Assembly (NCBI GenBank): GCA_021234155.1
Contig: JAJEKV010000072.1
Coordinates: forward strand, 3,912,407-3,976,406
Source: Isoetes taiwanensis
Taxonomy: Eukaryota; Streptophyta; Lycopodiopsida; Isoetales; Isoetaceae
Reading direction: 5' to 3'
Length of the DNA stretch: 64,000 bases
Shown here in pieces: positions 195 to 64,000 of the stretch. Position numbers and translations under genes: made by a program. Every line of letters starts with the position of its first letter. Within the stretch, counting starts at the first letter, position 1. The notes beneath the pieces were generated by a model that worked only from the letters and a program-made list of their open reading frames with translations, was not told the DNA's origin and made no database searches.

Positions 195-1092
195 GTGGTG
201 GACGATGATAGAGGTAGGGTTATGGTTAAGGAATCTTCTGTGCACGAACCAAATAATGAGATTGTTGATGCTAACATAGAAGATGCAGCAGTTATTCATA
301 CTGATGCAGAGGATATTGATATAGAGCCCCTAAATGTAGATCAAGTGCAAAAAGATGACTCTATGCTTCATGATGATATAGGCACTAGTAATGAAGACCA
401 TACAAATTTAGATGAGATGCCAAAAGATGATGTTTGGAGTGACATTAAAGAACAAGATAAGGATGCCATCGACCAATTCACGAAGAAGTTGCTTGTCTTA
501 GATTGCAATGGCATTCTTTATAGAATCTATCAAACAAGACATCATAATCCCTCAATATATGATCAGCCACCTGTATTCAATCATTGCAGATAAAATTATC
601 CACGTCCAAAGGCATATGAGTTCTTGAGGGCTTGTCTAGTACATTTTGATGTGGCTCTTTGGTCAGTGTCTACTATGGATACTTTATTGGATGCTTTGGA
701 TGCACGTGGCCTTAGTAAGCTAAAAATCCCTTCTTGTTCATTTGGCCACAAGCAGAATGTGAGAAAATGTTTCTATCAAGGAACTGGGAAATATGCAGAT
801 TTACTTAAAGAATTTGAAGAAGGTATATAGAAAGTTCCCGAGGGATTCAGATGCTATAATAACTTGGATAATGTAGGATTTCCAAAACTGTATGAGCCTT
901 CTGTTTATAGAACTTATAACTATTTGATGGCAGATTTGTTGCCAATTCTATATGAAATTGAGAAGTCTTCTGATGTAGTAATGGCATTGAACAACCTGGG
1001 GAGCTGAAAGTAATTGATCCTATCAATGCAGTTGTCTTGGAGCAAATCAGGGAGAAGAAGAAGGCACGTGATGCCTCAAGTTCTATCACATA
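195..1092 (+). pseudogene. FCP1/NIF-like HAD phosphatase pseudogene
   Basis: An acidic N-terminal part of about 95 codons is followed by KLLVLDCNGILYR (around 483-524). This is the motif-I segment of the plant FCP1/NIF branch of the HAD superfamily, where D-x-N-G replaces the usual D-x-D-G. Downstream, YEFLRACLVHFDVALWS (around 617-667) matches the next core strand and helix. Stops at 591-593 and 828-830 and a frame change near 1005 break the gene; the coding trace ends at the TAA at 1087-1092. Family members remove phosphate from Ser/Thr of proteins such as RNA polymerase II, but many plant relatives with D-x-N-G have no proven activity. The lack of introns over 900 bp suggests a processed or transposon-carried copy. 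The superfamily call is good; the substrate is unknown. Confidence 0.6.
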
Positions 1093-3061: not shown

Positions 3062-3574
3062 GTGCTCCATAAAATTGCGATGGCGATTTCTTACAGCATT
3101 CCATTACATTTTTATGTCAGGATGGAGCAATTGAGGTCTATTTTATTCAATGGGACGAAGGTGGGGGAGGCTCGTCTACACAACTTCACAAAGCACCAAA
3201 ACTTGCCCTTGCCCGAGGGTTTCGCTGTAGTGTCTGTGGAAGTCATTCTTGATGGGAGCATTCCGTTGCCTTATCCGGAACCCGAGATTTCAATACTTGC
3301 AGAGTCCAGAGGGAGTTTTATTTTGTGGCCCGAGAGAGATGTGACTGAGCTTGAAGATAACACTGCCGTCTCCACTCCACCTGCACAGATAAAAAAGCTG
3401 AATTGGTTGTTGTTAGAGGATCCCACGACTCCGTTTGGTTCACTACATCGTCATGGGGGTATTTCTAGGGAAGAACTTGTCGAGAGGAATTGCACACTTT
3501 TGCATGAATGCTGTGATATGCCTTATGGCTTCGGTGTGATCATCTTTACCGATCCTAATCAAGCGATTCTTTGA
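3062..3574 (+). CDS. Transposon-associated protein, DUF8039-like region
   Basis: An open frame of 170 codons. The stretch around residues 35-95 (VVSVEVILDGSIPLPYPEP followed by FILWPERDV) resembles the DUF8039-type module next to transposases of plant DNA transposons, which has a similar pattern of hydrophobic strands ending in a W-P motif. This is recognition from memory, not an alignment. It lies 34 bases upstream of the transposase-like frame on the same strand, so both may be exons or parts of one element ORF. The start is uncertain: the codons before residue 21 look like leader, and the ATG at 3122 is an alternative. No nucleic-acid-binding motif is visible. Confidence 0.45.
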   Translation: MLHKIAMAISYSIPLHFYVRMEQLRSILFNGTKVGEARLHNFTKHQNLPLPEGFAVVSVEVILDGSIPLPYPEPEISILAESRGSFILWPERDVTELEDNTAVSTPPAQIKKLNWLLLEDPTTPFGSLHRHGGISREELVERNCTLLHECCDMPYGFGVIIFTDPNQAIL

Positions 3575-3608
3575 TACTAGATTAGGTGATGACTTCCTGG
3601 CTGCCACC

Positions 3609-4973
3609 TTGATGAAGCTATGCCCCATGCCAGAAAGACCGTCAATGAGATGCCAAGCTTGTGCTGAGATGCCACAGTTGCACGACTTGGTGAAGTGGTC
3701 GAATGCTTTGGTGTTAGTAGACAATGTTGTTGTGTCGACACTCATAAAGACTGTCAGAGAGACAGTCATTGAAGCAGAACCCTATGCCATGCAAATTGAG
3801 GTCGAAAAGGCACCCAAGAGGATGTACAGAATGGTGAACCAGACTCCACATAAAGCTGCTGTGACCACTGAAGCCCAGAGAAAGGTCACGGCAGCTTCAA
3901 TTTTAAACTTCACATCTTCGATTTGTTGCATGAGAAGATGCTGCGCAAACTTCTCAACAGCCGAGATTAGGTGCATGCGTAGTTTCTATTGGAACTTGAG
4001 TGCTTCAGACAGGACCACATTTGTTTTCAACATGTTAGACGTTTGTTCAGAGAATGGACAGGTCAAGATGCTCATGCTAAATAACAAGCAGGTTTGCTTG
4101 AAAGCATGGCATATAACCTATGGTATTCCAATGTCCACTTTCTATAACTGGCGAAGACTTTTCCTTGCTGGTCACAGAGTTGCTGAACATAGTAACACGA
4201 GCACGAAAAAACCGAGGTCTCACACTCTAGCAGGGAAGGCCGTGCTGTCTATGTACATAGATGAGAACGCTGAGACAGTGCCCCACAGATCAAAAATCAC
4301 TACTGAAGGCGTGAGAGAGAATGTGAAGAGGCTCCCCTCTGTCCTAACCAAAAAAGACATTCTTCATGAGGTGAACGTCAATGTGATGGAGATGACAGGC
4401 AAGCACATCTCTCATTCTTCTTTCTCACGTGGGTGGAAGCTAAATCACAATGAGGTTGCAATAGCAAAGAGGATAGCTTTCTCTAAGTGCAATACCTGTA
4501 TTGTAATAAAAGAGAAAATGGTTAAGACGAGAGATCCAAGGGAGAGAAGAGAATTGCAGATTGAAAGGAAGGCACACATGATTGCCCAGATCTCTTGTAG
4601 GAGCTTGTACTGGTCATGGAGAGCTCTGTCCCATCGATCACCGGATCAGGCGCTCACTATCATACATGATAAGATGGACCAAAACAAGACTATGATTCCA
4701 AGACTGGAGAAATTAGCAAAGTCGGTATGGAGAGGTGAACGCTTGAAAGTTAGTGTGACTGGTGCACTGATGCATAGCCATGGCACAGGTGCATTGGGAC
4801 ATTTCTCACTTATCCTTTGGAAGGATGATTCAAACTTTCATGTTGGTTCCTTGAATCATGCTATCAAAACACTGGAGGATACTTCCGAAGATAATTGGGG
4901 CCATTTGAGAAAGTGGCTAAAATGTATTGTGAAACATGCAAATGAAGATAATTGTGCTAAAATGTATTCGTGA
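3609..4973 (+). pseudogene. DDE-like transposase of the GHTHDDID family, 3' truncated
   Basis: A 454-codon frame. The first about 120 residues fit poorly and may be read in the wrong frame. From about residue 120 on it matches the family also present at 51100-53890 minus. It has a Cys-containing segment SKCNTCIVIKEKM (about residue 295), a helical linker, IIHDKMDQNKT (about residue 355, proposed first catalytic Asp) and LMHSHGTGALGHFSLILW (about residue 387). The frame stops before the QLDN and GHTHDDID blocks seen in the other copy, so the catalytic core is incomplete. The last about 30 codons are not family sequence; they read into a short tandem duplication of the downstream flank. The family resembles what I recall as DUF7869-type proteins of plants, fungi and animals. 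Confidence 0.6.
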
Positions 4974-6744: not shown

Positions 6745-6867
6745 CAAACGTTTCTTTGAACGCTGCCTAAGCCGCCCCAAAAATCCCTGTTTTTTGCAGA
6801 TATTTTCTCTTCCTCCAAAATTTCCTTTCTTTAGCCTTCTTTTCAACTTTCACTCCGTTTCTTCCTC

Positions 6868-7512
6868 ATGCAAATGGATTCCTCCCTTTCAATTCTTGCA
6901 AATTCGTCCTCTGATCTGCGACTCCTCCCACGATTTGAAGGCCGAGATTATCAAATGTGGCGTTGGCATCTCCAGATGATCCTAGAAGACAAAGACCTCT
7001 GGGATTCTGTCTCCTCTCCTATTGCTTCATCTCCCGTTGATTCATCCACTGTTCTTGAAGTTGTTTTGGATGACTCTGTTCCTGATTTTCGAGAGAAGGA
7101 CCGCAAGGCTCGGTTAATAATATGTACTAGCCTCAGTGATATGCCTGCACGTCTAGTCAAGGGGGCTAAGACTGCTCGTGAAATGCTGACTCTGCTTGAT
7201 AATCATTATGCATCTCAAGCTGCTGGGAATAGATTGGCTCTGAGAAAGGCCCTTTATGATTTACATCTTTCTGAAGGAGGAGACGTCATGACCCATATCT
7301 GTCATATGAAAACCATGATCGATGATCTTGATGCCACTGGGGTGCAGATCACAAATGATGAAAAAGTCTTCCCAAAATCTTACGAAGGTTTGATCATCAA
7401 TCTGGAAGGGCGTTTGAATGATTACACCTTTGAGGCTGCAATTGACAGTGTGAAGGCTGAATCCTTGAGACAAGGCAATTTTAAAAATCCCAATCGACTC
7501 AAGTATGATTGA
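6868..7512 (+). CDS. gag: Copia gag, capsid part
   Basis: A frame of 214 codons with the copia capsid pattern: RFEGRDYQMWRWHLQMIL near the start, then ARLIICTSLSD, a segment on tri-helix turnover (LLDNHYASQAAGNRLALR) and YDLHLSEGGDV. It builds the particle that packages element RNA. The natural start may be the ATG at 6874. The frame stops before the zinc knuckle, whose decayed remnant (CY.GKIATLL.EC) follows at about 7565-7612, so gag is cut off from pol. Confidence 0.9.
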   Translation: MQMDSSLSILANSSSDLRLLPRFEGRDYQMWRWHLQMILEDKDLWDSVSSPIASSPVDSSTVLEVVLDDSVPDFREKDRKARLIICTSLSDMPARLVKGAKTAREMLTLLDNHYASQAAGNRLALRKALYDLHLSEGGDVMTHICHMKTMIDDLDATGVQITNDEKVFPKSYEGLIINLEGRLNDYTFEAAIDSVKAESLRQGNFKNPNRLKYD

Positions 7513-7563
7513 AGATTCCAAGAATGTCTCTACGCCCTCGATTAGATCGTATCTTATCGTAAC

Positions 7564-9084: not shown

Positions 9085-9149
9085 ACTTACCCTCCTTGAC
9101 GCCACCTCCACCTGTTACTCCACCAATGCCTTCTTTTCCAACGTCACCA

Positions 9150-9285
9150 TCTCATGATCTGCCACCCTCTCATGCTTCCGGCTCTCGCCCAACGGTTTCC
9201 CCTGATCCTCCGTCACCATCTTATGATCTGCCACTCTCTCATGATTCAGAAGCTCTTGCTCCACCGGGTTCCCCTGATCCTCTTG
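9150..9285. repeat. About 70-bp Pro/Ser-coding repeat in the pol linker
   Basis: TATGATCTGCCAC, CTCTCATGC/ATGATT and GGTTTCCCCTGATCCTCC recur in the same order about 70 bases apart. It codes for the Pro-rich linker between integrase and reverse transcriptase that is variable in copia elements. Confidence 0.7.
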
Positions 9286-9442
9286 TTGATCCACCTGTTT
9301 CTTCACCAGACCTCTCCTCCACCTGATCTTTCTCCTCCTCCTAGCAGGCTGGTTTGACTTAGGAAACCTCCTGCCTGGACTCAAGACTATACTTTTTTTT
9401 ACTGAAAATATTCCATCTGAACCTACCTCTTACACTCAAGCC

Positions 9443-10970
9443 ATGAAAAGTCCCTTTCGACAGGATTGGCTAACAACCATGCAGAATGAACTTGCTTTCA
9501 TTCATGCTGCCAATACATGGACTCTTGTCCCAAGACCGCTCATCGCCCAAGTAATTTCCAAAGAAATGGGTCTACAAATTGAAATACAAACCAAATGGTA
9601 CTGTGGACCGCTTCAAGGCACGATCGGTTGCTCGTGGCTTCAATCAAGTTGAAGGCATCGACTTTGAAGAAACCTATGCTCTGGTTGCTAAAATGGAGCT
9701 TATGCATCTTCTAAACACATGCACATTCATCAAATGGATGTGCACAATGCTTTTCTCAACGGCACTCTGCAGGAAGAAGTCTATCTTGAACAGCCACAAG
9801 GTTTTACATCATCTGATCCCACACAAGTCTGTCGCCTCCACAAAGCATTATACGGCTGCGCAAGCCTCACGCTCATGGTATACCCGCCTTGACCAAACTC
9901 TAGTTCACCTTGGCTTTGCCCACACTGATGCTGATCCAAGTGTCTATTTTAAATTTCAACCTCATCTTCTTATCATCTTGTGTTACGTTGATGATCTCCT
10001 GATTGTCGCTGCTCATGAAGCAGACCTTACTTCCATCAAAGCTCACCTTAATTCAGCTTTTCGCATGAAAGATTTAGGCTCCATACACTATTTTCTGGGC
10101 ATTGAAATTACATATCATCGGTCCCGCACCCTCCATCTTCATCAAACCAAGTACCTCCGTGACCTTCTTCATCAATTTCAGTTTTCTTCTTGCAATCCTG
10201 TCACGACTCCACTTGAATTTGGCATCCACTTGCTTCCTACCGATCCTACCGTCTTCCCCTCCCTTCAATACATCCATGATCATTACCATCAGATTCTAGG
10301 CATGATCAACTTTGCTGCTATCACCACCAGGCCCGATCTTGCCCTTCCACTATGCACAATTCTCCACTGCACCCAAGAACCGTCACTGTGCTTCCCTCAA
10401 AAGGGTTCTCCGTTATATTGCTGGCTCTCTTCAATTTGGACTTCAATATCACACCAGCTCTCCTAATCTTGATCTACATGGCTATTCCGATGCCGATTGG
10501 GCTGGGGATCATCACGACCATAAATCCATATCAGGTTATGTATTTCTTCTTGCAGGGTCTGCTGTCAGCTGGAGCAGTTCAAAACAGACTTGTGTATCTT
10601 TGTCCAGCACTGAAGCTGAATACATTGCCCTCAATTCAATCATGCCTCCAAAGAAGCCATTTGGCTGCAACGTTTATGCTCTCAACTTGGCTTCATCTCC
10701 TCCACCAACACTCTCATTTACGTTGACAATCAAGGTGCTGCTGCCATTGCAAAGAATCCTGTTCTTCATCGCCGCATCAAACACATTGACATCAAGTATC
10801 ACTTTGTTCGCAATCTTGTTAATGACAGCATCATCCGGCTACTTCATTGCTCCACCGATCATATGGCTGCAGACGTCTTCACAAAACCTCTGGCTCGTAT
10901 CAAACATTCTAAGTGTTTGACTCAAATTGGTCTGCATTCTTCCAGTGGTGATCCTGATTCAGATTCCCTC
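9443..10970 (+). pseudogene. pol: Copia reverse transcriptase and RNase H, frameshifted
   Basis: The RT start KPNGTVDRFKARSVARGF is seen near 9585, the catalytic box CYVDDLLIV at about 9981, and the fingers-connection segment HYFLGIEI at about 10088. RNase H has DADWAGD (about 10489), STEAEYIAL (about 10609), VDNQGA and HIDIKYHFVRN in other frames to about 10915. A small deletion removed the sequence around LYGLRQA-type residues near 9850, and several frame changes (9590, 10310, 10620) break the frame. All core catalytic residues I could look for are still visible. Confidence 0.93.
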
Positions 10971-27680: not shown

Positions 27681-28159
27681 GTAGTAGTGCTAATGTGGAT
27701 GCATTTATTACATTAACCCATGAGCTACTCTACATTAATTTTTTTGATATTTTTCCCTCGAGATCTCGATGCACATGAATGAACTAACGCTGACGAGGAT
27801 TTTTTTGTCTAAATAACATTTTGGGGGTTGGGTTGCCGGGTCCGCATTGAGTTGTTTGTGTTGTAGTTAAGTAAAGTAAGTATGTTAAGTGATTTTTGAA
27901 CATCCCAATTAGGGACAGATGCCAATTAGGATTAGTGGACTTCCTAACTCGAGACTTCCAACTCGCCACCCTCGCTTAGTCTCTTTCGCTTTTCTGCTTT
28001 TGTGTATCTAATTTGCCCCTAGGATGACATCGCCACACTGTGTGGCTTAATTAGGTACGCCAAGCAGAAACTCGAAAAGGGAGTAAGCCAAGAGCGATGG
28101 CAAACAATATAGACTTCTCAAATTTTGTTACCTCCTTTAGATGTGGGTTCATTAGATGT

Positions 28160-29590
28160 TAGTGATTGATGAGTTCAAGCATCGAGACTTCCCCTTTTTT
28201 TCCCCGCTCTTTGGGCAATGTAGCTTAGTTTACATGCTAAGTTCCATTGTCCAAAGACCCGGGAAAGCAAAGATTGGGACGCCTCGATGCCCGACCCGTG
28301 TCTTCGGGTTAATTGGATGTTAGTGATCGATGAGTTCAGATCGAGACTTCCTCATCTTTTTTCCCTCCTCTTTGGGCAATGCGCCTTAGTTTACATGCTA
28401 AGTTCCATTGTTCAAAGAGGGGTGAAAGCAAGGTTTGGGAAGTCTCGATGCTTGTATTCGTGTCTCTTTCATCCCGCCTAGAGCGTGACTTTCTTGAATG
28501 GTTGTCAACTCACCAAAGCTTGATATTGTTCGGCGCAAACAATATAGACTTCTCGAAATTTGTTACCTCCTCTAGAAAGAGCGGGCTTTGTTCTCGACTC
28601 TCTTGTGTAGTCTCTCCGCGGTCAATGTAGCTTAGTCACTTTGCTAGGTTATATTACACAAAGAGGCTCACAATGGGAGTCGGAGCAAAAATCGCTCGCT
28701 CTAGAGGTTGAACTTGCTATGACGCCGAGGGGAGAGCGCACTCTAATTTCAAGCCAAAGTGGTGCCTCGGTGTTGTCCATCTATATAGCGTTGTTAGGCA
28801 CCAAATCATGGAACATCCTAACTCCTCGCTATTGATGGAGAACCTTGAGCATCACTATGACTTCAAATTAGAGTACGCCATCCCTTTGGCAAGGTGGTGG
28901 ATTGTAGGTAACAAGGTTTTGAGTACTCTATTTTTATTGTGGCAGCGGATGATATCAGCCTAGTGGTTGCTTTTTTGCATTCTCGCGGGTTAGACGCCGA
29001 TGGCACAGTTAAATCGCTATTTGATGCATCCGACCTATAATTTGTACCTCCATTCCTTTGGGTGGCACATGCCATGCAAACCCATTTGGGTATTCAGAGC
29101 ATGTGCCACCCAGAGGAATAGAGTACAGATTATAGGTCCAGATAGCATTCAAATGGCGATTTGGCATACCAAAGTTATTCCCGACTTGGGTACCGAAGTA
29201 CCTTGTGAACCTTCTGATGGATCAGATTCGTCCGGGCTGGTCCGAGGCTGTTTGGCCCCTTCGCATGCGTAGATTACTTCTCATCAGCAAGATTCTGGCG
29301 CATGCGAAGAGGCAAGCAACAACGGAGGTCGAGACGGGTCTGATCCACGGAAGGTTTTCAGGGCACTGCGGTTACACATGAAAGAAACATAGAAAGAACT
29401 ACCATACATGAACCCAGGTCTTTGGGGGTAAGTTCGACATAAAATAAGATAGCTCAGTGATTGACGAGTTCAAGCAACGACACTTCCCACTTTTTTTTTT
29501 TCCCGCCGCTTTTGGGCAATGTAGCTTAGCTTGAATGCTAAGTTCCATTGTCCACGAGGCTGGGTGAGCAAGATTGGGAAATTCTCGATG
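28160..29590. repeat. 130-bp dispersed unit x3
   Basis: Units at about 28160-28290, 28321-28451 and 29456-29590 share TGATGAGTTCAAGC, CTTTGGGCAATGTAGCTTAG, TGCTAAGTTCCATTGTCC and GCTCGATGC-like ends. The middle of the unit (CTTAG...CTAAG) is an imperfect palindrome. Confidence 0.85.
29011..29162. repeat. Long imperfect hairpin (about 75-bp arms)
   Basis: AAATCGC...CCTATAATTTGTAC...GGGTGGCACATGC on the left pairs with GCATGTGCCACCC...GTACAGATTATAGG...GCGATTT on the right, meeting at CCCATTTGGG (about 29080-29090). Arms agree over most positions. It could be a MITE remnant or a small-RNA-producing foldback inside the hAT element. Confidence 0.85.
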
Positions 29591-50050: not shown

Positions 50051-51099
50051 GTCACTATATTGTATAGATACCAGTATCTTTTATACTATCTTAACCCATG
50101 GTGTCTGGTCTTCAGGCGTCCCCTTTAAAATAGGGTCAACAGGGGCCAATTGGACTCCAGAAAGACTGCTGATGGGCGAACATGATGTGTGGAGAGGGAA
50201 TATCCTAGGAATTGTGCCACCATCTAAGGGTCACGAAAAAATAATACACGCTTTAGCTATATCTAGAGGGTGCATACGGTGAGCATTGATTTCTATTTGA
50301 CTTTTTAATGGTTACCACCCATATATTTTGTGAGATGTATAAACTTATCCATGCACTAGTAATAGAATAGAATAGTTATGGTGCCCGGCCAGCAATGCTC
50401 CCAACTCGGAAGGTGAGCCTACTTATCGTCAAAGAATTGCTCCTTTAAAGCTAGTTGCTTTTCATTTTTCAAAGCTTCTACAATATCTCATACGTAGAAT
50501 GCAATAATAATGCATCATTGATAGGCCAACAATGCTCCCAACTCGGAAGATGAGCCTATTTATTTTCTAAGAATTTTTCTTGAACTGCTCTTTTAAAGCT
50601 AGATGCTTTTCATTTTTCAAAGCTTCTATACTATCATTTGTAGAATGCAATAATAGTGGATAATGGGTGTGCATAGTAGGGTGTACGTTGAGGTTGAATT
50701 GAAGGTGCAAAATTTATCTTGTTTGTTATATAGATATCTGAAACATCTCATCTTGTAAAAGCAATTGTTTTGGGAAGTTCTTAGTAATTCTTAAAGTTGC
50801 CTTTATATAATCTTAGTGGCTACGAAGTTGCAGTCAAGCTGTATTGCTAAGCTTTCCATTGAATTGAAGGTGCAAATTTTACCTTGTTTATTATATAGAT
50901 ATCTGAAACATCTCATCATGTAAAAACAATTGTTTTAGAAAAAAGTGCCCTGAAGTCGTATTTAATTAAAGTGGGACAAATCTTGAATTTTGGGACTCGG
51001 ACTGAAAATGGGACTCACACCCCATAAAAAAAATTTTGGAATTGATTGCTTGAATAAAATTACACATCACACACAAAGAATTGGGTTACTTGTTTTCCT
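50051..51099. other. Tandem duplications and LINE leader copy, no gene
   Basis: A 136-bp unit (GGCCA(G/A)CAATGCTCCC start) repeats at 50387 and 50523. A 165-bp unit (GAATTGAAGGTGCAAA start) repeats at 50694 and 50858. AGTCGTATTTAATTAAAGTGGG at 50954 matches the LINE leader. No coding trace supported. Confidence 0.7.
50387..50935. repeat. Two adjacent tandem duplications (136 bp and 165 bp)
   Basis: First pair 50387-50522 and 50523-about 50660. Second pair about 50694-50760 and 50858-50930, sharing ATAGATATCTGAAACATCTC. Confidence 0.85.
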
Positions 51100-53890
51100 C
51101 ATAAATTTTACAAACCACTAGTTGAGAAAGTTTTCAAGCTTCTCAATATTATCTACCCTCGCATAAATGATATAGCATGGAGGTTGCTCATGGCTTTGTC
51201 CATCTCCCTTCTTGGGATCTTGTGTGTGTTGTCCTTTGCAAAGGAGAACTTGGATATGACCATACCACACACTCCACCAATTCCCCCTTTGAGGATCAAA
51301 GATAATTTGCTCTCCACTTCTTCTCCCAAAGAAATTCTGTATTGCTCCTTCAAGTTGCCCTTCTTGTGTCTCCCAATGGGCTCCCAATATTGAATTTGGA
51401 ATCCGTGACGCAACTCCTCTCCATCGTGCATAGTGGTGGTTACATCGTAGACTGCCACCCCTAACCATATTGGATGGGCCCTCATCATCGCCTTACTAGC
51501 ACAAAGTATCCTTCCTTGATGTCCTCAAAGGGATCCCACTCAGAAGATCAAACCACTTCTGGCTTTGAGGCCTTACTTCCCACAAACCACTTGGAACCCT
51601 TGCTAGGACCCAAGTGAACATTCTTAGACGTGCTTGCTCCTTGAGAACCCTCCCATCTTGACTCTGGCAAGAACCCGTCTCTTAGCTTCATCCCACATGG
51701 TTGTTCATTTTCTAAGCATGTCACAACTTTCTCCCAGTACTTGATTAGGGAGTCCATTTGATTTTTCTTAAGAGTGGAGGTGAGCTTTCCATTTCGAATA
51801 TCATCCCAGTGCGTTATGTAATCCTTGATGCCCTTCACTAGTTGGCTAGAGTCTTTGACAGTCTTGAAGGGAGGTAGTAGTTTTGGCTGCCCTTTAGGAT
51901 TGAGAACTTCACCAGCAGCACCCCTTTGCCACAACTCGATTCCTTGTACAGGCATCCACAACTTGTCACCTGGTCTCCACTTATATTGCATGATTGGTAT
52001 TCCATCCCTAACCCAAAACTTGAACTGAAGTGGCTTTGTGTGTCCTGTCAACTAGTCCTTACCATCTAGCAAGTATCCCTCTACAAATGATTTCCAATCT
52101 GCAACCTCATCCATCAAGAAAGCCATTGGGTTGGGGTCAATGCAGCTCTCAAACACATCCATTAGTTCAGGGAGACTAGTCACATTTTCTCTCTTGAGCT
52201 TGGTGGAGAAAGTTCCAAAGAATCCATCTATATCATCATGCGTATGCCCAACCATCATGAATCCCACTTTCACAACTTTGAATACTCCCACTGCTGTCAA
52301 GTATGACATTGCCCCAAACATCCATCTATTCTTGTCTTCTTTCCAACAGTTGTCCAATTGAACACATAGCTCCTCGTGCAAAGGTTTCTCAAGTAAGGGG
52401 AAATCATCCCAAGTCCTCCTTGATTCACTAGACACCTTGGATGTGAGCTTTTTATCTCCGCCTTTGGTAACAAAGCGGTTGATCATCCATCAAAGCCTCA
52501 AAATGGGTGCTGAAGGGGAATACCTCCTCCCTTCTATCGATCCTTTCTAGTGTTCTCAAGCACTTGAAAATAGAGCTCACATGGAAGTTTGGATCATCCC
52601 TCCATAGATCAAGCACAAAATGACCATATGTTCCAGCCCCATGACCATGTGTTAAGACACCCGCCAGACTTACTTTCATTTGAAAAGCGCTTTGACAACG
52701 CTTTGGGTAAAGGATCTAGCTTTGGCAAGAAAGTCTTGTGTTGATCCATCTTATCATGAATTATACACAAAAATTTGTCCCACCGCATCTCGTAAAATGT
52801 TCTCCACCGCCAATACAACCGCTCTACATGATATTTGGTCCCTTTGGTGATCTGCAAAATTGCTCCCTAATTGCCATTCTTTCTTTCTCTATTGCAGTTG
52901 ATGCAAGTGTATCTTTGAGTTGAATGCAAGTGTTGCACTTTGAGAATGGCATGTGTTGCGTGACACTTACGCCCGAGAAGTGAGTGCTCCATAACTTGCT
53001 GAAATGTGATTGAGAAAGAGGCCTACCTCCAAAGTAGTTTCTAGGATGGAGTTGACCTCTTTAAGGCACTCCTTTTGATATAGTGTTGTGGCAACACCCT
53101 TTGCACCACTCGCACACCGTGCTCGCTCACCTTCGACTTGTGGGGCATAGATTGAGACATGTATCTCACAAAGCTCTCAAGACTCCAATGGCCTTGAGAG
53201 TATTTGCTCTAGGTTTCAAAGTGAGTGCATTACCATGTTGGAACAAACTGTGCCCTTTTCTAACCCCGCCCCCAAAGATCTCAGAGAATGAAGACTTGCT
53301 CACCCCAAGAATCCATCTCAATGCTCTCATACATACCCTCATGCCCCTCAATTGATATAATAGCCTTCCCTGTTTTTCATCATAGCTGGAATTCTTACAC
53401 AAGGAGTAGATGAAATTAATCCTATCTTTTGAAGTCGGTCCAATGTATTGGGACCTTATCTGCACGAGGTCATCTACACTGTACTGCATTGTCCCCTAAT
53501 TGCCTCTAGGTTTTCTTTGGTTGGGGCCATACTTTCCATCCTTTCTAAATATTTGTCACTTCTAGGCCTCTTGGGCACCCTTGGCTGCCTTTTATGAAAA
53601 ACATAACATCTCTTCCTTGTGATCAAAGGATGCTCATCGACCACCAAATCTTCCACATGGCCTTGAGTGGGTCTTGGGGTATGTAGTTGAGTAGGGCATT
53701 CCAGACTATCATCATTCTTGTGTGTAATATATCTAATTGGCCATCTCAACCGACTTTGGGACTCCAAAGAACCCGAGCACACAATGCAATCACTAGAGCT
53801 TCCCGACATGATTGTATCAACTTCGATAAGAAGCTTCACAAAGCTAACTCCAAGATGATCATCTCCCCAGCCTTTCATCATTCACACTAT
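51100..53890 (-). pseudogene. DDE-like transposase of the GHTHDDID family, nearly full length, broken
   Basis: Reading minus from about 53881: an N-terminal part with SDCIVCSGSL and Lys/Arg-rich KRPRSDKYLERMES, then LVQIRSQYIGPTSKDRINFI, WILGVSKSSFSEI, and IIHDKMDQHKTFLPKL (about 52780-52730, proposed first Asp). Next are GVLTHGHGAGTYGHFVLDLW (about 52660-52600), CVQLDNCWKEDKNRW (about 52370-52330, second Asp) and GFMMVGHTHDDIDGFFGTFS (about 52270-52210, third acidic site). A 167-codon C-terminal frame (52051-51548) and a tail with GVAVYDVTTTMHDGEELRHG complete it. Frameshifts lie near 53160, 52860, 52610, 52450 and 51540. It shares its middle with 3609-4973. No terminal inverted repeats found. 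Confidence 0.75.
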
Positions 53891-54056
53891 CAAAAGGATC
53901 AACTGCAGCTATTATGCCCTCTCGCAGAATACCGCCTCGCTGCAAGGGTGCAACAACAAGCAACCCATCTTCCTCCATTGGAGCCTAGGGCAATGGCCCT
54001 GTGGCCGGGCTTCCTTGGCTCCACTTTGCTCATCTCACATGCTCCCTGAATTAAAG

Positions 54057-54283
54057 AGCACCCATTAAAACCATATACAACCATATATGAATGAGCACTA
54101 TAGCCATATAACCATTAGAAACCATACAACCATTAAAAACCATTGAAAACCTTATAACCATTAAAAACATTAAAACATTTAAAACCTTATAACCATTAAA
54201 ACATTTAACACTAACATTTAACATTAAAACATTTAACATTAACCATTAAAAAGCATTAAAACATTACAACCATTAAAACATAG
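54057..54283. repeat. AACCATTAAA microsatellite-like array
   Basis: Drifted tandem of AACCATTAAAA, CATTTAAC and AACCATATA words over about 230 bases. Confidence 0.9.
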
Positions 54284-55229
54284 GCTTCCCTGAATCATGA
54301 CTCGTATCGACGGGGTTCTTCGTCACCGACATCCGACATGGTCACGCCACAGCCAGTCACTTTGTGGCATGCCACACACGTGACTCTAGGTCTGTCATAA
54401 ATGCCACTTTTTCGAGGTTCGAGGGTGCAGCCAGAAATAACTGCACCCTCTTCCTCTTCTCCCGCGACCCCTATTCCTTCCATTCCTCTTTGTCTTCCCC
54501 TCGTTTCATTTCCCAGATCCGCCGTTCTCCTGTTCGCCTTTGGCGCCGATTCGCTATTGCATTTCCAATGCAATCTTATGATCAGAAGCGTGGTCGACGG
54601 ATCGCGACGCATCCAAATGACGAGGTTTTGGCTCAATTTGAGTCACCAAAGAAAAGTACTTCCTAAGAAGAAAGTGAGAAACCTTTTCTCAGTAGTTTTG
54701 ATATTCTTATACCGCTTGTTTATTGTTTTTTGCAATTCCTTTACTAATCGGTCTGCTCCTATTATTTTTTAGAGCCTCTTTATATACCCCGATACATTTT
54801 CCAGCCCTCGACAAATCCTTACTCTCGCTTTGTAAACGCCAGAGTAAAATGGAATCGAACTCGCAGCCTTCCTCCTCATCCAACAAATCTACCGTATTTT
54901 TTTTAATATTTTCATTTGTTCCGATGTTTCAAAGTCGCTTTCAATCGCTTTCCTTTTGATTTGCTTTCTGCTTGTGCTTTCTTGTATTTAGTTATTGTTT
55001 ACTTGAATACCTTGAACGTAAATCAGCTTCTTAGATGCTAATAGTAGTGGCAAGCACCACTTAGGAATCCCGAGAGATAGGAAGAAAAGTATTGCTTAAC
55101 AAGAAGAGAACCGCCTATGATTCATAAAAGAACGTAACTATGCATGAAATTGCTTTTACGTAAACTTAAAATAGGAATTGCCATACGCTTTGAAAATTTC
55201 ACTCACAAAGATATCCTCCTTTGGGGAGA
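54284..55229 (+). other. Two promoter-like segments with short frames
   Basis: A frame at 54364-54666 ends QSYDQKRGRRIATHPNDEVL and is unrecognised. TTTATATACCCC (54779-54790) followed by an ATG at 54849 (MESNSQPSSSSNKST) looks like a core promoter and start, similar in layout to 38646. No longer gene follows. Confidence 0.3.
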
Positions 55230-57040
55230 GGTGCGTATGGAACCCGCTGATCGGGCGAAGTGGGAATCCCTCGCCTTGCCAACAATCCGAAAGTACAGGC
55301 CTTATTCTCGACTCATGCGAGGCGAAATGAGAAATGTACACTCGGATTGTTGGTCGGTTGAGGCATTCTCGACTCGCGAGTTGAGAATGGCATTCCTAGC
55401 CAATGCCTCTAACCTGTCGACAACACCCGCTAATCTCACACACACCAGTGCCGGCTCTAGTGTATTCTACGCAGTGCTCTTGAGGGTATCGGTCTTTAAC
55501 CACTCTTCTTCAAACTATCTTGCTCGGATATTGCGAGGGAAGTGGTTTTGACTGCCTGTTGAGCCAACTCTTAACAAGCCAATTCTCACATGTATGTCGG
55601 TCAGCAGTGGCCTCTACCCGATCGAGACCCCTCCTTGAACCATCTTCGCCAATATTGCGAAGGGGATGGGCTCTGACCGGGTGGAGGCCTCTACAACTAA
55701 CCACGTGGAAACCATTAGAAAGCATGCCGCATTCTCGGCGCTCGGCGAGTCGAGAATGCCTTATCCTCCAGCGCCCATGTGTACTATCCGAGTTCTCGAT
55801 GGCTAAGGCATTCTCGACTTGTGAGTCGAGAATGCGGACAGGAAGCCAACACTTGCATTCTCGACTCGCAAGTCGAAACTCAGAACCATCCAATTCTCTC
55901 GTGTATGGTGTTGGCCTCCACCGGTCGAGCCACTCTCCTTCGAACCATCTTCGTTGAATATTGGCGAAGGGAGGGGCTCTGACCGGTGGAGGCCTCTACA
56001 ACTAACCACGGGGAAACCACAGAAGCTTGTTCAAGATTCTCGACTCTGCGAAGTCGAAATGCCTTAAACCAGCCAAAGACTCCATGTGTACTATCCGAGT
56101 TCTTCGATATTTAAGGCATTCTCGACTTGGCGAGTCGAGAATGCATGTGAGGTTAACACTTGCATTCTCGACCGCAAGTCGAGAATCCCTTAGCCCCAAT
56201 TCTCCCTGTATGGACCAGGGGCCTCGACCCGACCCGTAGCCACTTCCTTCTCTCAACCACCTTCGTCAATATTGGGCGAAGGAGGGGCTCTGACCGGGTG
56301 GAGGCCTCTAACCAACCACAGGGAAACCACAGAGTTGATGTCTACATTCTCGACTTTGCGAAGTCGAGAATGCCTTTAAACCAGCCAGCACTCCATGTGT
56401 ACTATCCGAGTTCTCGATGATTAAGGCATTCTCGACTTGCGAAGTCGAGAATGCGCAGAAGCCAACACAGCCTTTCTCGACTCCTCAAGTCGAGAACCGT
56501 AGCCACCAATTCTCCTCGTAAGGAGTCAGCATGTTTCTACCCGCCGAGCCACTCTCCTTCAACCATCTTCGCCTAATATTGCGAAGGGGGGCTCTGACCG
56601 GTGGAGGCCTCTACAACCAACCACGTGGAAACCATTGAGCTTGTCGTTCGCATTCTCACTCGCGAGTCGGGAATGCCTTTAAACCAGCCCAATTCTTGCA
56701 TTCTCGACTCGCAAGTCGAGAATCCCTTTGGCCCGCCTCCCACATAGCAATGCCCGCCCCGCAGCATTTCTCGGGTGTGCTCGCATGCCCGCCCACTCTC
56801 CTTCAAACTATATCGCCGAATATTGCGGGCGGGAAGTGGCCCCCGATCGTCCGTCAGCCTTTGGGACGAGCACGTGCCTCTACAACCAAGCACTTTTTAT
56901 TCTCCTCTTTTAGTCCCAAGTGCCTCTAGCCTATCCGAGCCACTCTCCTTCGAACCACATTCCTCGAATATTGCAAAGAGGAGTGGTTCCGGCGAGGTGG
57001 AGGCCTGTTCGACTAACCACGTGAGGATGCATTTGAACCG
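55230..57040. repeat. About 305-bp satellite with internal palindromes
   Basis: CTCTGACCGG(G)TGGAGGCCTC recurs at 55671, 55977, 56288 and 56592 (periods 306, 311, 304). Each unit also has CCACTCTCCTTC, GCGAAGG, CCACGTGG and two or three palindromes of the type GCATTCTCGACT..AGTCGAGAATGC. Decayed units flank it on both sides. Short open frames inside are chance products of the repeat. Confidence 0.92.
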
Positions 57041-57084
57041 CGATCTCCGTGGCCTTAGACCTAGCCTCGATCTATATACAACAT

Positions 57085-57690
57085 TCAAGAAAACATTCCA
57101 AGAAAAACACACCTAAAACGGAACTGTTCACGCGCTTGCCCCGATCCATTGTTTCCGCATCGGGCATCTCTCAACCCGTAGAGTAATTCATCTCTCGGGT
57201 TGAAGAATGCTCGACAAGGAAACAAGAAATGCGGGAGCTTATGAGCAGTCCCATGATCTAAGCACGGACGGCGGCATGTTCTACACACAAAATAACAGCA
57301 TCTCAAAACTCACCTCTTCACGCAGCAATTCCTTGGGCCATTGTATGACGTGATCCCGCAGCCTCACCGAGAGTCTTTGCTTCTTCCGCCGGTCTCATCA
57401 AGAGTGCATTCGCATCTAATACTTGTATCAATGCGATTTTAGTGTATCCCCATTCCATTGCGCTGCAGTGTAGCATTCCCGTGTCCGGCGCTCCTCTCCG
57501 CTTGCTACCTTAGCTCCGTGCTCATCGATCAAATCAACTACTTGCAATAAGACGCTCGGTTAGAAAAAATAAACAGAGCAAGGCGCCGGGAGGAGCTTAC
57601 CGCTGCCGTGGACGCCATTCCGAAGTCGCCATACCGATGCTCGCTCCCAACTCCGAAGTCGCCAATGCCGCAGTTGAAGATAAGCTACAC
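57085..57690 (-). pseudogene. Ankyrin-like fragment
   Basis: Reading minus from about 57600: VVDLIDEHGAKVA, then DTGMLHCSAMEWGYTKIALI and QVLDANALLM (about 57480-57400). This follows the ankyrin repeat pattern T.LH.A...G...I...L...A.AL. It continues as RPAEEAKTLGEAAGSRH. Further on, FVCRTCRRPC and a 73-codon frame (57306-57085) may be a Cys-rich C-terminal region. One to two frame changes. The family call rests on one repeat, so it is tentative. Confidence 0.35.
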
Positions 57691-59170
57691 CGCTACACTA
57701 AGTCCCCGGATGTGATTCATTTTCGAAATGGTGTTTGGGCAAAAAGCCGCATCGCGGTTGCACCCTTTAGCCCGCTTTTTTTCTTAAATGATTGTATGTC
57801 CTTAAATTCAAAATTAAGAACACGCCCGACCTTTTTACGTGCAGTCCTAAAATCTCCAAGGCGCGGAGGAAGCTTAATTTACAGAAGGGTTCGAGCAGCA
57901 AGAAGATGATGGGGCATACATTACATGACGACTCCGCCCAAGAAGTTTGGTAGGAGGCGGAGCGAAGCCGGTTCTAGCGGGCAAGAGGAGGAAAAGACAA
58001 AGCGCCCAGAGAGATGAGGTTTTTCTTTGGTCGGAATACCTTTACTCATCCATCCTTTGGTCTTGCAAAGATTCACCGAGGACTCACTAGTGATCACCGG
58101 GTCAACTCCGCTTCTTCATCATCGAGGGATTGGAGACAGAGCTTCTTGACACACCAAAGCGATTCTTGGTGGTATGTCGAGGTATCAACAAGTGGGAAGG
58201 AGAAAGATCCGCTTTCTCCACCAAAGGGATAAGAAGAGCTCCCGAGACAAGTACGAAGAAGGTTGTTGTGCTCTCCGCCTCAAGCCCGATTCAAGCATCT
58301 ATCAATGTTTGTGGAAGACCGCCGTAAGAGTAAGTTCTACCACACGAGAAATTATCGGGCTTCAAATTATTCTCACTCTTCAATGAGCAAGTCGTCGGCA
58401 CCGGCACCTATTAAAAGGCCTTCCATGCCTTTAAACCGCCGTAACCTTGGGTGGAAGGATCCGAAAGGATGAAGGCGATCCGATACTTTCAATTTCCTTG
58501 TCTTTTGCATGTCGGCAATCGACAACCGCTATCTCCCAATGGGCAGCTGATATTAACTTCACCAACAAGATCTTGTACCCCATATAATGAAGCTTGAACA
58601 TGAGTGTAGACTTGGCTTGCAAGGCACCAAGCTTTGCCAATAGTTTTGGTTTTGGTTTCAAGATCGGCTGTAGACCTGACAAGTGGTGGTCTAGCTTAAC
58701 ATCATTATCTCGACAGTTCATGATTTCTCAAGAGCGTATGGAACCCTCGAAGGGCGGCAGATTTATGGAGGATGTGCCATCGATGGACAAAGTCAAAGAA
58801 TGATGGTGCGACAGGTCCTATACATAGAATTCTATCCGCCAAGGGTTATCAAGTACTTCATAACCAGCTTTGGTCGAGGAAGATCAAATTGTATGCGAAG
58901 TGGTACATGAATGGACTGTTCTCTCTCGGGGCTATGTCAGATGGAATGAAACCTATATCCGTGGTTGGAAATAAGGACATGGTTGAAACCATTCTGGTCA
59001 TACCCTCGATCTCGCTTCATGAGCATTTCAAAGGGAGGAAGACAAATGGAAGCAAAGAAGGACGATGATGACGAAGACAAACCCGAGAGCGCAGGAAGAG
59101 AAACTTGACGGAGACGAGAATCTCAAGGTCTAGACCGTATGTCATGGAACAAATTCTTGAGAATCTGAAA
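57637..59170 (+). pseudogene. Decayed coding-like region, unknown, partly tandemly duplicated
   Basis: Frames include 57637-57909, FLVVCRGINKWEGER (about 58145), DLACKAPSFANSFGFGFKIG (about 58605-58665) and WYMNGLFSLGAM plus ISVVGNKDMVETILVIPS (58900-59010). The last block is repeated at 63455-63680. No family recognised. It precedes an FCP1-like remnant on the same strand. Confidence 0.3.
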
Positions 59171-59459
59171 TTGAGGTGAGTTCACTTTGTTCGTCTCGGT
59201 TTCTCGATTCATGAAGTCGAGAAACCTTTCCATTTTTGACTCACGAAATGAGAAAACTCGCTTTCCTATCCGACATCTCTCATCATTTCAGGAACATCGA
59301 ACGCAACGATTCCGATCATTGTCAATATCTAGTGGCGGTTCACGCCGTGAGGACACCGTTGACACCCCAAAGACAATCAAGACACCGCGACAAAATTAGA
59401 AAGGACTGAAAATTAATGATCCCGCATATGGATCCCGAATTTAACCGAAATATGGTCGA

Positions 59460-60125
59460 GCCAAACTCCAATCGGGATCCACCGTCCCACCCAAGCTTGT
59501 AATATTTGACGCCAATGGAGTATTAGCCGCAGATACCACGATAAAGACGCTCGAGCTTAATACCTCGCAGATCCCGAACAAAACGGAGCATAAAATCGTA
59601 TCCGAGGCCTAGAGCAAAGGAAATTGTTGAATGGTGCCCGAACGGGATTCGGGTGGCCATATGGTCTTGTATGGCAAAGAAAAATATTGTCAATGTTCTT
59701 GGTGTTCTCGGCCTTCCAGTTTTGAAGTTCAAGTTTGTTTGGGGAAGCCAAAGGGTCGAAAGCATGTGTCGATCTCGATCCAGCCATCACAAAGGGGAAG
59801 CATATTATGGTGAAAAGGTCGGCCGAGGGTTTATGAACAATTCCTGACTTTGGGAAACACAACACGCCGATCATAGACGACTCCGCCTACAAGTGCTATC
59901 ATAACTCGCGTAATACAATCATTGCTAAGACTTATCGACCGTAAGAGTATGAGATGGATAGGTGGTTGTCTTTCGACTTTGTCCTGCCTTTGGCGGAATC
60001 CCTCTTTGCCATTCTTGTGGCCGATGTGATTAGCAACTATCCGAGCCTCAAAGAACCCGATCCGTAGAGCCGCCAGCGATCATGAAAGCTATGGACGACA
60101 AATATTTTGGTGATCAAGAAGAGTG
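59460..60125 (+). pseudogene. Second FCP1/NIF-like HAD pseudogene
   Basis: PPKLVIFDANGVLAADTTIK (59485-59540) is HAD motif I in the D-x-N-G form, as in the gene at 195. Then VAIWSCMAKKNIVNVLGVLG (about 59648-59708), FKFVWG and LIIDDSAYKCYHNSRNTIIA (about 59870-59928) are motif II and III regions, the latter with the acidic pair. The C-terminal part (MKAMDDKYFGDQEE) ends near 60125. A short stretch after motif I is missing, and several frame changes occur. It belongs to the same superfamily as 195-1092 but is clearly diverged. Confidence 0.7.
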
Positions 60126-60492
60126 AAGTCAAAATTGTGTGAATATTGTAAAGAAACGTGAAGAAATGTACTATATTTTGTAATGAATATACATGTATAT
60201 TGAGTTTTTTCGGCTTTCTTTCTCAGAGTCGAAAGGCATGCTTGTCCCGTTGATGAAACCATTTGTATGTTTGTTTGTGTGGACCGATGCAGCCATAATC
60301 TATTACGATATTGGTTGTATATTGTTTTCGGCCTTTCTCGACTCATGCGAGTCGAAAAGACACTACTCTTCACGGATTGGATGCACTTATATGGAATGAA
60401 TGCTCTATTGTAATTTGATTTCACCATTCTTTCTTCCTTTGACTAATGGCACCGTGAATTGTTAATCATAGACTCTCCTTGCTCCGTGGTTC
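60126..60492. other. No gene; two CTCGACT palindromes
   Basis: Sequences at about 60205-60235 and 60335-60357 (CTCGACTCATGCGAGTCGA) match the satellite palindrome theme. AT-rich otherwise. Confidence 0.5.
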
Positions 60493-60846
60493 GTGCATGA
60501 TCCGGACACCAAAGCATGCATCCCGCTCGTGCATCACAGAGAACGCCTCCAAGGCACGATCCTACCAAGGCGCAGAGATACCGCTCGCACAGATCCCGCC
60601 ACACTACACTCTTGCCCTGCTTTTGGGATAAGGTTGCTCGTGAATGCGCACGCTATGCACACGCCGGATGAAGAAGACGGGAAGAAATTTGAGACAGTCC
60701 AGAAAGCTCATAGCATCTTGCAAGCATTGCATAACATCCACGAGGTTGGGGAAGGAGCATATTCGATGATAAGTCATGGGAGGAGAGTGGAGAAGTCGGG
60801 TGGATGTGTCGGCCGGTGGCTCCGTGAGGCACCTCCGTGGACATGA
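60493..60846 (+). other. Open frame of 117 codons, unknown
   Basis: MHDPDTKACIPLVHHRERLQ at the start, then a helical stretch (DEEDGKKFETVQKAHSILQA) looks protein-like and is followed by a less convincing tail. An antisense frame overlaps. No family recognised. Confidence 0.3.
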
Positions 60847-63440: not shown

Positions 63441-64000
63441 CCCTATCCAGAGCCAAGGGTTATCAAATTACTTCATAACTTGACTTTGAATTAGAGGAAG
63501 ATCAAATTATCTTGATTGGTACATGAATGAATTCTCTCGAGGGGGCTATCTTTGTATGGAATGAAACCTATATCGGAAGTGGTTGGAAATAAGGACATGG
63601 TTGAAACCATTGGTCATACACCGGATGCAGCATGAGCATTTCAAGGAGGAAGACAAATGGAAGCGATGGGGGCAGATGATGGCGAGATAGGCTTGAGGCC
63701 GAGGGAAGAGAAGCAGCGGAGCGAGGAGATCACCGAGAAGGTCTAGACGAGGAATCGCTGAACAAATTCTTGAGAATCTGGGGAATTGAGGTGGGATTCA
63801 CTTTATACGTAGGTAACATAGGCTTCGTCGAGAGCACTTCCATTACAGCTCGCAGTGAAAACTCGTTCCTATAGGCATCATCATTTGGGAACATCAGGCA
63901 TAGCGACTCAGGATCATCAATATCTAGGTAAGTTTCACGTCGTGGAGACCATACACGAAGACAATCAAGACTAGACCGAAAGGACTGAAGAATTAATGAT
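63441..64000. repeat. Second copy of the 58830-59420 block, cut by the window end
   Basis: AAGGGTTATCAA(G/A)...ACTTCATAAC at 58841 and 63455, GTGGTTGGAAATAAGGACAT, and the closing GACAATCAAGAC...GGACTGAA(G)AATTAATGAT (59375 and 63960) match in order. Period is about 4.6 kb. The next bases outside the window should start the FCP1-like sequence again. Confidence 0.85.

What the first reader, a model, noticed from the sequence alone, without database searches (positions are those of the whole stretch)
51100..53890. Unusual transposase-like family with a DDE-type triad (GHTHDDID family)
The minus-strand protein shows three ordered acidic blocks: IIHDKMDQ, QLDNCWKEDKNRW and GHTHDDIDGFFG. Hydrophobic strands precede each one, as expected for an RNase H-like DDE core. 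It does not read as hAT, CACTA, MuDR, Harbinger, Mariner or piggyBac. A diverged second copy is at 3609-4973, next to a transposon-associated DUF8039-like ORF. From memory, similar proteins are annotated only as domains of unknown function (DUF7869-like). If they are transposases, this is a poorly described DNA transposon superfamily in plants.
Basis: partly seen in the sequence, partly recalled or inferred. Interest (0 to 1): 0.78.

Follow-up and report, generated by a model that had tools for sequence, protein, structure and literature searches.

The report
Giant plant transposon with DUF7869 transposase
The odd protein in this quillwort DNA is the decayed transposase of a large, abundant DNA transposon, most likely a land-plant branch of the little-studied Sola-1 group, which gives a likely function to a protein domain so far listed only as 'unknown function'.

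Summary
The minus-strand protein at 51.1-53.9 kb is Pfam DUF7869 (E=1.9e-33), broken by frameshifts, with all three acidic blocks. It lies in a decayed DNA transposon, right end at 50953. The genome (size of the published Isoetes taiwanensis assembly) holds over a thousand relatives. Full-size copies measure 10.7-12.6 kb, with 25-bp inverted repeats (2,313 exact matches, control 0), exact 4-bp target duplications in 19 of 20 pairs (2 of 380 mismatched pairs), and empty sites. A second clade (transposase 25-27% identical) has its own repeats and 4-bp duplications in 4 of 4. A divergent partner gene looks ParB-like; short palindromes lie between the genes; at least one copy adds an NLI-type phosphatase. 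Intact relatives (38-39%) sit in an Azolla-symbiont bin, probably fern contamination. The aspartates are invariant (29 of 29), order D-80-D-41-D in one relative, but the model of the core was too poor to prove an RNase H fold. Duplication length, DDD order and an opposite-strand ParB-like gene match the published Sola/Sola-1 pattern. I file it as a probable Sola-1 relative; no Sola sequence was at hand to test.

The parts
50953..60836 (-). decayed clade-A DUF7869 transposon; right end intact, left ~425 bp missing, about 3.2 kb deleted internally at 58475/58482 relative to a complete copy
   Evidence: right end shared with other copies; left limit and deletion from alignment to copy c3; no left inverted repeat found in the window
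50953..50977 (.). right terminal inverted repeat, AAGTCGTATTTAATTAAAGTGGGAC read on the + strand
   Evidence: sequence; the 25-mer pattern has 1149+1164 exact matches in the genome, reversed control 0
51118..53881 (-). transposase pseudogene (DUF7869), broken by frameshifts
52741..52764 (-). first acidic block IIHDKMDQ (candidate first catalytic Asp)
   Evidence: both D invariant in 29 of 29 aligned relatives
52322..52360 (-). second acidic block QLDNCWKEDKNRW (candidate second catalytic Asp)
   Evidence: D637 of the L053 numbering invariant in 29 of 29
52214..52249 (-). third acidic block GHTHDDIDGFFG (candidate third catalytic Asp)
   Evidence: D676 and D679 invariant in 29 of 29
55304..56723 (.). 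array of short inverted repeats (TTCTCGACTCGCAAGTCGAGAA type) between the two divergent genes
   Evidence: 8 inverted pairs against a resampled mean of 0.17; 4 of the window's 5 matches lie here, 0 expected; perfect 12-mer palindromes are not enriched here (0)
57978..58475 (+). remnant of the opposite-strand ParB-like gene (N-terminal part; the ParB-like motif falls in the internal deletion)
   Evidence: ORF 57978-58232 resembles the start of the 388-aa ORF of copy c3
3540..4973 (+). second, truncated and diverged DUF7869 transposase copy (first acidic block only)
594..830 (+). possible NLI-interacting-factor-like phosphatase fragment near the second copy
   Evidence: weak, below cut-off: PF03031 E=0.023; the gene in the complete clade-A copy c3 scores PF03031 E=7.1e-10, above cut-off

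Best explanation
The DUF7869 protein is the transposase of a large terminal-inverted-repeat DNA transposon that inserts with a 4-bp target duplication, by cut-and-paste-type chemistry. It most likely belongs to the Sola-1 lineage of the Sola superfamily, here in a land-plant form. Shown: exact ends, ~25-bp inverted repeats (5'-AA...TT-3'), 4-bp duplications, empty sites, high copy number, invariant aspartates, purifying selection on the transposase of clade C and of the bin relatives, a divergently transcribed partner gene, and inverted-repeat arrays between the two genes in many copies. Inferred: the aspartates form a DDD active site on an RNase H fold; excision (cut-and-paste) itself; the partner is a ParB-like DNA-binding protein; it recognises the array and so marks or regulates the element's own DNA. 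The Sola-1 name (about 0.6 on its own) is inferred from shared architecture, not from sequence.
For: DUF7869 matches. 26 of 26 other scored copies end within 7 bases of the same right end (27 of 3,800 candidates were scored). TIR 25-mer 2,313 exact matches, reversed control 0. 4-bp TSD in 19 of 20 clade-A pairs against 2 of 380 cross pairs; the 20th has 5 bp. Four clade-A copies read first: 3 of 4 exact, one agreeing at 3 of 4 bases. Clade C 4 of 4, TIRs 20-24 of 25 identical. Empty sites: flanks joined with one TSD copy match a host repeat at up to 99% over 168 bp (40 listed), and two fetched sites carry a single TGTT. D557, D560, D637, D676, D679 invariant in 29 of 29 sequences: Isoetes clade A 3, clade C 19, symbiont bin 7. 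D-80-D-41-D in L077; in clade A (L007) D-133-D-41-D. dN/dS 0.06-0.12 in 7 of 7 pairs, five from the bin and two from clade C. Partner: 19 of 103 listed matches lie within 8 kb of one of 150 listed DUF7869 hits, 19 of 19 divergent, ten shifted controls 0-1; divergent too in the four bin loci, of seven, where it is seen. Sola: DDD, 4-bp TSD, TIR 11-1124 bp, mostly 2-9 kb and some over 15 kb, found in a moss (PMC10741241, passages). Sola1-1_Ec32: ParB-like protein on the strand opposite the transposase (PMC12477816, passages).
Against: The AlphaFold model is poor: whole-model mean pLDDT 44.5, and 23-47 per ten-residue block over residues 331-480, the core. Foldseek has no match at E<=0.001; integrase rows of the second look have Z 4.0-4.3, tied with unrelated folds. 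No Pfam DDE family matches the transposase, which does not help a DDE reading. No Sola sequence was available. The ParB assignment is weak: NCBIfam TIGR03764 E=0.0021 and 0.041, far below cut-off, and none for the other partner proteins scanned. The published Sola-1 partner also has a DNA methyltransferase domain; none was found in the five partner proteins scanned with Pfam. The array is not seen as perfect 12-mer palindromes in the window, and four of ten regions had one inverted pair only.
Confidence: 0.85

Rival explanations
1. A separate, unnamed DNA transposon superfamily: DUF7869 transposases with 4-bp duplications and a ParB-like partner that are not related to Sola by sequence.
For: The DUF7869 proteins scanned match no other Pfam family convincingly; no paper in the searched library holds the name DUF7869 (0 papers); Sola sequences could not be compared; the AWWT duplications reported for some Sola2 elements are not the rule here (4 of 23; PMC3627910 passages).
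Against: TSD length, TIR length range, element size, DDD order and the opposite-strand ParB-like gene match descriptions of Sola or Sola-1 (PMC10741241 and PMC12477816, passages).
Confidence: 0.3
2. An Academ-type (AcademX) element, which also makes 3-4 bp duplications.
For: TSD length fits (PMC10045372 passage: AcademX 3 or 4 bp).
Against: The passage links the two Academ lineages to a helicase and a nuclease; neither was met in the ORFs scanned, which were not all ORFs. No ParB-like partner is mentioned for Academ in the passages read.
Confidence: 0.07
3. DUF7869 is a passenger or structural protein and another gene of the element is the transposase.
For: The elements carry several other ORFs: a NIF phosphatase, the ParB-like ORF, a 311-aa ORF and a 166-aa ORF.
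Against: DUF7869 is shared by clades A, B, C and the bin loci, with invariant ordered aspartates and, in clade C and the bin, purifying selection; no other element ORF scanned matches a transposase family, though not every ORF was scanned.
Confidence: 0.06
4. The repeats spread by segmental duplication or as a gene family, not by transposition.
For: One set of DUF7869 copies is a plain 4.2-kb tandem duplication.
Against: Exact ends, target duplications and empty sites.
Confidence: 0.01

Closest known systems
Sola superfamily, Sola-1 lineage (e.g. Sola1-1_Ec32 of the brown alga Ectocarpus; PMC12477816, passages read)
   Same: Large element, a ParB-like protein encoded on the strand opposite the transposase; for Sola in general a DDD transposase and 4-bp duplications (PMC10741241, passages read).
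   Different: No methyltransferase domain found in the partner proteins scanned; an NLI-type phosphatase gene in clade A; land-plant hosts. Sequence relation to Sola-1 untested.
Sola2 (e.g. in Dictyostelium fasciculatum; PMC3627910, passages read)
   Same: 4-bp AT-rich duplications, an 888-aa transposase, short inverted repeats of 12-21 bp, accessory genes in some families.
   Different: Duplications reported as AWWT there; here 4 of 23 fit AWWT.
DUF7869 (Pfam PF25273)
   Same: The transposase core of clades A and C and of the bin loci scores far above the Pfam cut-off.
   Different: Pfam describes it only as a domain of unknown function; here it is tied to a mobile element.
AcademX DNA transposons (PMC10045372, passages read)
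   Same: 3-4 bp duplications.
   Different: Linked there to a nuclease, not met in the ORFs scanned here; no ParB-like partner mentioned in the passages read.
ParB/parS partition systems (prokaryotes; general knowledge, recalled)
   Same: A ParB-like motif (GGNHSFKARRQL, GGSHSAEARRQL, DGQHSVRAAQ) beside arrays of short inverted repeats.
   Different: Weak profile scores only; no ParA-like protein among the ORFs scanned; binding untested.

Membership tests
Sola superfamily | 4-bp target site duplication | tested here: met
   Clade A 19 of 20 pairs exact (20 fetched of the 27 inward pairs within 15 kb among the places listed), cross-pair control 2 of 380; clade C 4 of 4.
Sola superfamily | terminal inverted repeats (11-1124 bp in the review read) | tested here: met
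   Clade A: 25 bp, identity imposed by the search pattern over those 25 and 0.4 or less beyond; clade C 20-24 of 25.
Sola superfamily | DDD transposase on an RNase H fold | tested here: inconclusive
   Invariant ordered aspartates; AlphaFold core low confidence; integrase rows at Z about 4 tied with others.
Sola superfamily | sequence or profile similarity to known Sola transposases | not testable with these tools
   No Sola sequence or profile was at hand; the look-up of the founding paper, by a DOI given from memory, found nothing held.
Sola-1 lineage | ParB-like gene on the strand opposite the transposase (reported for one family, Sola1-1_Ec32) | tested here: inconclusive
   Opposite-strand divergent partner shown; its ParB nature rests on motif and sub-threshold profile scores.
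Sola2 lineage | AWWT duplications | tested here: not met
   4 of 23 exact duplications fit AWWT; AWWT from PMC3627910 passage.
Academ | encoded nuclease or helicase | tested here: inconclusive
   None among the ORFs scanned; not every ORF was scanned.
hAT, MuDR, Mariner, piggyBac, CACTA, Harbinger, Dada | their own duplication lengths and termini (8 bp; 7-12 bp; TA; TTAA; CACTA ends; 3 bp; 6-7 bp without TIRs). MuDR and Mariner from PMC10741241 passages, Dada from PMC3706591 passages; the others recalled | tested here: not met
   4-bp duplications of varied sequence, none TTAA, and AA...TT ends.
Ginger and retroviral-type integrases | integrase core (Pfam rve) match | tested here: not met
   No rve match for the DUF7869 proteins, while rve is found by the same scans for integrase ORFs.

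The most novel reading that the evidence does not exclude
The element carries its own parS-like system: the divergently transcribed ParB-like protein spreads from the palindrome arrays over the element's DNA and chooses its fate (silencing escape, copy control, or synapsis of ends 8-12 kb apart). This module, with a DUF7869 transposase, would define a transposon lineage running from algae to lycophytes and ferns.
Probability: 0.25. Interest if true: 0.78.

Novelty: new variant of a known kind. Interest (0 to 1): 0.52.

Why it matters
It gives a testable function, transposase, to a Pfam domain of unknown function that is very abundant in this genome. It supplies exact ends and duplications with which plant annotators can recognise the copies. 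The conserved divergent partner, ParB-like by motif, with inverted-repeat arrays beside it in two Isoetes clades and in some bin loci, makes an open question testable: whether some eukaryotic transposons bind and mark their own DNA with a prokaryote-type protein.

Tried and rejected
Fold: two AlphaFold jobs. The transposase (A5, 9 rows) gave mean pLDDT 44.5, with a better N-terminal, mainly helical part (about residues 70-260) but a poor core; the ParB-like protein (A4, 4 rows) gave 36.2, useless. Foldseek against PDB and BFVD gave nothing at E<=0.001; a foamy-virus integrase is sixth in PDB at E=0.29. In the VIA second look integrase chains (SIV, HTLV-1, foamy virus, HIV-1) appear at Z 4.0-4.3 over model residues 317-453, tied with deacetylases and helicases, and Tudor/spindlin-like chains at Z 4.1-4.6 over about 695-799. 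No other fold is excluded. In that low-confidence core the order is strand (330-336, ending at D336), helix (392-403), strand (411-417, ending at D417), helix, strand (443-449), helix (455-471, with D459); the second and third strands of an RNase H core, expected between residues 337 and 391, are not in the model. This is compatible with an RNase H core but no proof.

Sequence searches without relatives: viral contigs with three queries; PDB sequences with A1 (0 at E<=1), A4 (0 at E<=10) and A5 (4 MHC chains, E 0.07-0.64). Literature: DUF7869 in 0 papers; the Academ-H paper and the DOI I recalled for the Sola paper were not held, so no Sola or Academ sequences could be compared.

The tandem DUF7869 copies on C112 were looked at as possible tandem insertions but are a 4.2-kb tandem repeat in which no long inverted repeat was found. 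A left end for the window copy was sought and not found, so its own duplication could not be tested.

Against the array idea: perfect 12-mer palindromes in the window array number 0 (shuffled mean 0.48) and 0-1 in four bin regions, against 2-5 in three clade-C regions; counting inverted pairs with a stem of 9 or more and a loop, c3 (as I cut it), L054, L055 and L078 have 1 each, and the one pair of c3 is a hairpin outside the array motif.

Full report
Observation. The three acidic blocks are present on the minus strand at the stated place, in two different frames of a pseudogene. The protein is Pfam DUF7869: window:52055-52489 scores E=1.9e-33. A genome-wide search with the back-translated GHTHDDID motif finds 917+952 exact matches and none for the reversed pattern. 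The copy at 3540-4973 is real but holds only the first block. The neighbouring ORF at 3035-3574 has no Pfam match at E<=0.1, so the DUF8039 label is not confirmed.

Host. The genome held as G000 has 1,658,258,908 bases in 1,110 contigs. The published Isoetes taiwanensis assembly is 1658.30 Mb in 204 scaffolds plus 909 contigs (PMC8566536, passages). The sizes agree, the piece numbers nearly so. I infer that the window is from that quillwort.

The element. A search of the genome with the window region scored 27 of 3,800 candidates; the 26 other than the window itself all end within 7 bases of the same point on the right, window 50953 (eight of them read). Longer stretches of four copies gave the left ends. 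The ends are inverted repeats, AAGTCGTATTTAATTAAA[GT]TGGGAC. This 25-mer pattern has 1,149+1,164 exact matches and 0 for the reversed control. Among the places listed there, 27 inward-facing pairs lie within 15 kb; I fetched the flanks of 20 of them: 11 spaced 11.0-12.6 kb and nine spaced 3.7-5.1 kb. Nineteen of 20 have an exact 4-bp duplication and one has 5 bp; flanks taken from different elements agree in 2 of 380 combinations. Of the four copies read first (10.7, 11.6, 11.9 and 18.0 kb, the last with an insertion), three show exact 4-bp duplications and one agrees at 3 of 4 bases. In the 20 pairs the repeats are identical over 25 bp (imposed by the pattern) and lose identity just beyond. 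For two copies whose flanks lie in host repeats, the joined flanks match uninterrupted repeats elsewhere. In the first, a copia-like repeat, the 40 listed matches have 89-99% identity, the best over 168 bp, and two such sites carry a single copy of the duplicated TGTT. The second, a LINE-like repeat, confirms the 5-bp duplication at two of the three sites read; at the third that stretch did not align. 'Copia-like' and 'LINE-like' are my reading of the flanks. The copies are therefore insertions. The window copy keeps its right end but lacks about 425 bp on the left and about 3.2 kb internally, so its own duplication cannot be tested.

A second clade. DUF7869 in this genome gives 9,907 first-look candidates, of which 150 were scored. 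Many of those that I fetched belong to a clade C; the two window-clade (A) rows are 25 and 27% identical to it in the alignment. Four clade-C elements were delimited: 7,978, 8,046, 8,380 and 8,393 bp, with left ends such as AACAAGGTTGCAAATTAAACGGGAG, inverted repeats identical at 20-24 of 25 bases, and exact 4-bp duplications CAAT, AATG, TAGC and AATT (4 of 4). Over both clades the 23 exact duplications (19 and these four) are 80% A+T; 4 of 23 fit AWWT and none is TTAA.

The transposase. From 37 loci I collected 39 ORFs with the later two blocks; 29 of them also matched my pattern for the first block and were aligned, and 10 were left out. Clade A contributes 3, clade C 19, the bin loci below 7; many clade-C rows are close relatives. 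D557, D560, D637, E642, H675, D676 and D679 (L053 numbering) are among the residues invariant in 29 of 29. In L077 the order is D336, 80 residues, D417, 41 residues, D459; in clade A (L007) the first interval is 133 and the second again 41. Seven of seven ORF pairs compared give dN/dS of 0.06-0.12: five pairs from the bin and two from clade C, with dS above 2 in four of the seven; clade A was not tested. The proteins are kept under selection, as expected of a transposase. No Pfam DDE family matches those scanned.

Relatives elsewhere. A scan of prokaryote genome contigs found seven loci, all in one MAG named 'uncultured Trichormus sp.'. They hold transposase ORFs of 873-924 aa (stop to stop), 38-39% identical to clade C, and four of the seven also show the divergent partner ORF; the other three contigs or loci have little sequence on that side. 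Of 292 genomes sampled from its phylum only that MAG has DUF7869, and one of its contigs also carries an LTR-type integrase. Trichormus (Nostoc) azollae is the symbiont of the fern Azolla (recalled), so I infer fern DNA in the bin; this is not proven. Viral contigs gave none with three queries.

The partner genes. On the opposite strand lies a gene whose motif (GGNHSFKARRQL, GGSHSAEARRQL or DGQHSVRAAQ) looks ParB-like; that reading is mine. NCBIfam ParB model TIGR03764 scores E=0.0021 and 0.041 for two of the four partner proteins scanned, both far below its cut-off; a PHROG named ParB-like scores E=0.4 for one of three. Of 103 listed matches of this protein in the genome, 19 lie within 8 kb of one of the 150 listed DUF7869 hits and all 19 are divergent; ten shifted controls gave 0 or 1. 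Both lists hold only scored best candidates, so 19 is a lower bound. The complete clade-A copy c3 also carries an NLI-interacting-factor-like phosphatase (PF03031 E=7.1e-10); ORFs that look the same by eye are in c2, c4 and c5 but were not scanned. Between the divergent genes lie short inverted repeats that differ by lineage: TTCTCGACTCGCGAGTCGAGAA in clade A, GTGTATTCCGGAATACAC in clade C, GCATCGACTT/AAGTCGATGC in the bin loci. Inverted pairs (stem of 9 or more, loop of 12 or less) number 8 in the window (resampled mean 0.17), 6 in c1, 7 in L053, 10 in L080, 11 in L079 and 3 in L081, but only 1 in c3, L054, L055 and L078; four coding controls have 0. Perfect 12-mer palindromes are in excess only in the three clade-C regions.

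Fold. The model of L077 (A5) is poor in the core. No Foldseek match is significant. Retroviral integrase cores are among the weak rows, tied with unrelated folds. The RNase H fold therefore stays an inference from residue order and spacing; the low-confidence order of strands and helices is compatible but lacks two strands.

What it is. [quoted passage not shown] The present elements match in duplication length, size, residue order and opposite-strand ParB-like gene, and differ in that no methyltransferase was recognised and that a phosphatase is present in clade A. I therefore regard them as a probable Sola-1 lineage in land plants. That DUF7869 is the Sola-1 transposase by sequence was not tested, because no Sola sequence was at hand. 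The claim that this is a transposon with a DUF7869 transposase stands at about 0.85; the Sola-1 name at about 0.6.

Novelty. The kind (TIR DNA transposon) is known. The name DUF7869 is in 0 papers of the searched library. In the listings (new superfamilies, Sola, ParB) I recognised no title or abstract start that describes such elements in lycophytes or ferns; only listings, and passages of a few papers, were seen, and earlier names for these proteins could have escaped me.

Noticed in passing
window 6835-10466 (+): A decayed Ty1/copia retrotransposon (gag, integrase and reverse transcriptase Pfam matches) sits beside the truncated second DUF7869 copy.
   Followed up: no
window 28150-28441 and 63442-63804: Short pieces similar to the interior of the clade-A element, suggesting further fragments in the window.
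   Followed up: no
G000:C112, L056 (about 1,331,500-1,346,000): A clade-B DUF7869 gene recurs at 4.2-kb steps, four motif places in a row; the 10 kb read is a tandem repeat.
   Followed up: partly
G000, TIR pairs about 3.7-4.1 kb apart (e.g. C1:1354476-1358475): A size class of about 4-kb elements with the same 25-bp ends and 4-bp duplications (eight of the 20 pairs tested), too short for the full gene set; probably non-autonomous derivatives.
   Followed up: partly
L077-L083 (MAG 'uncultured Trichormus sp.'): A cyanobacterial MAG contains probable eukaryotic (fern?) transposon contigs.
   Followed up: partly
L077 model residues about 695-799: Weak Tudor/spindlin- and chromo-barrel-like matches of the transposase C-terminal part, a possible chromatin-reader domain.
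   Followed up: no
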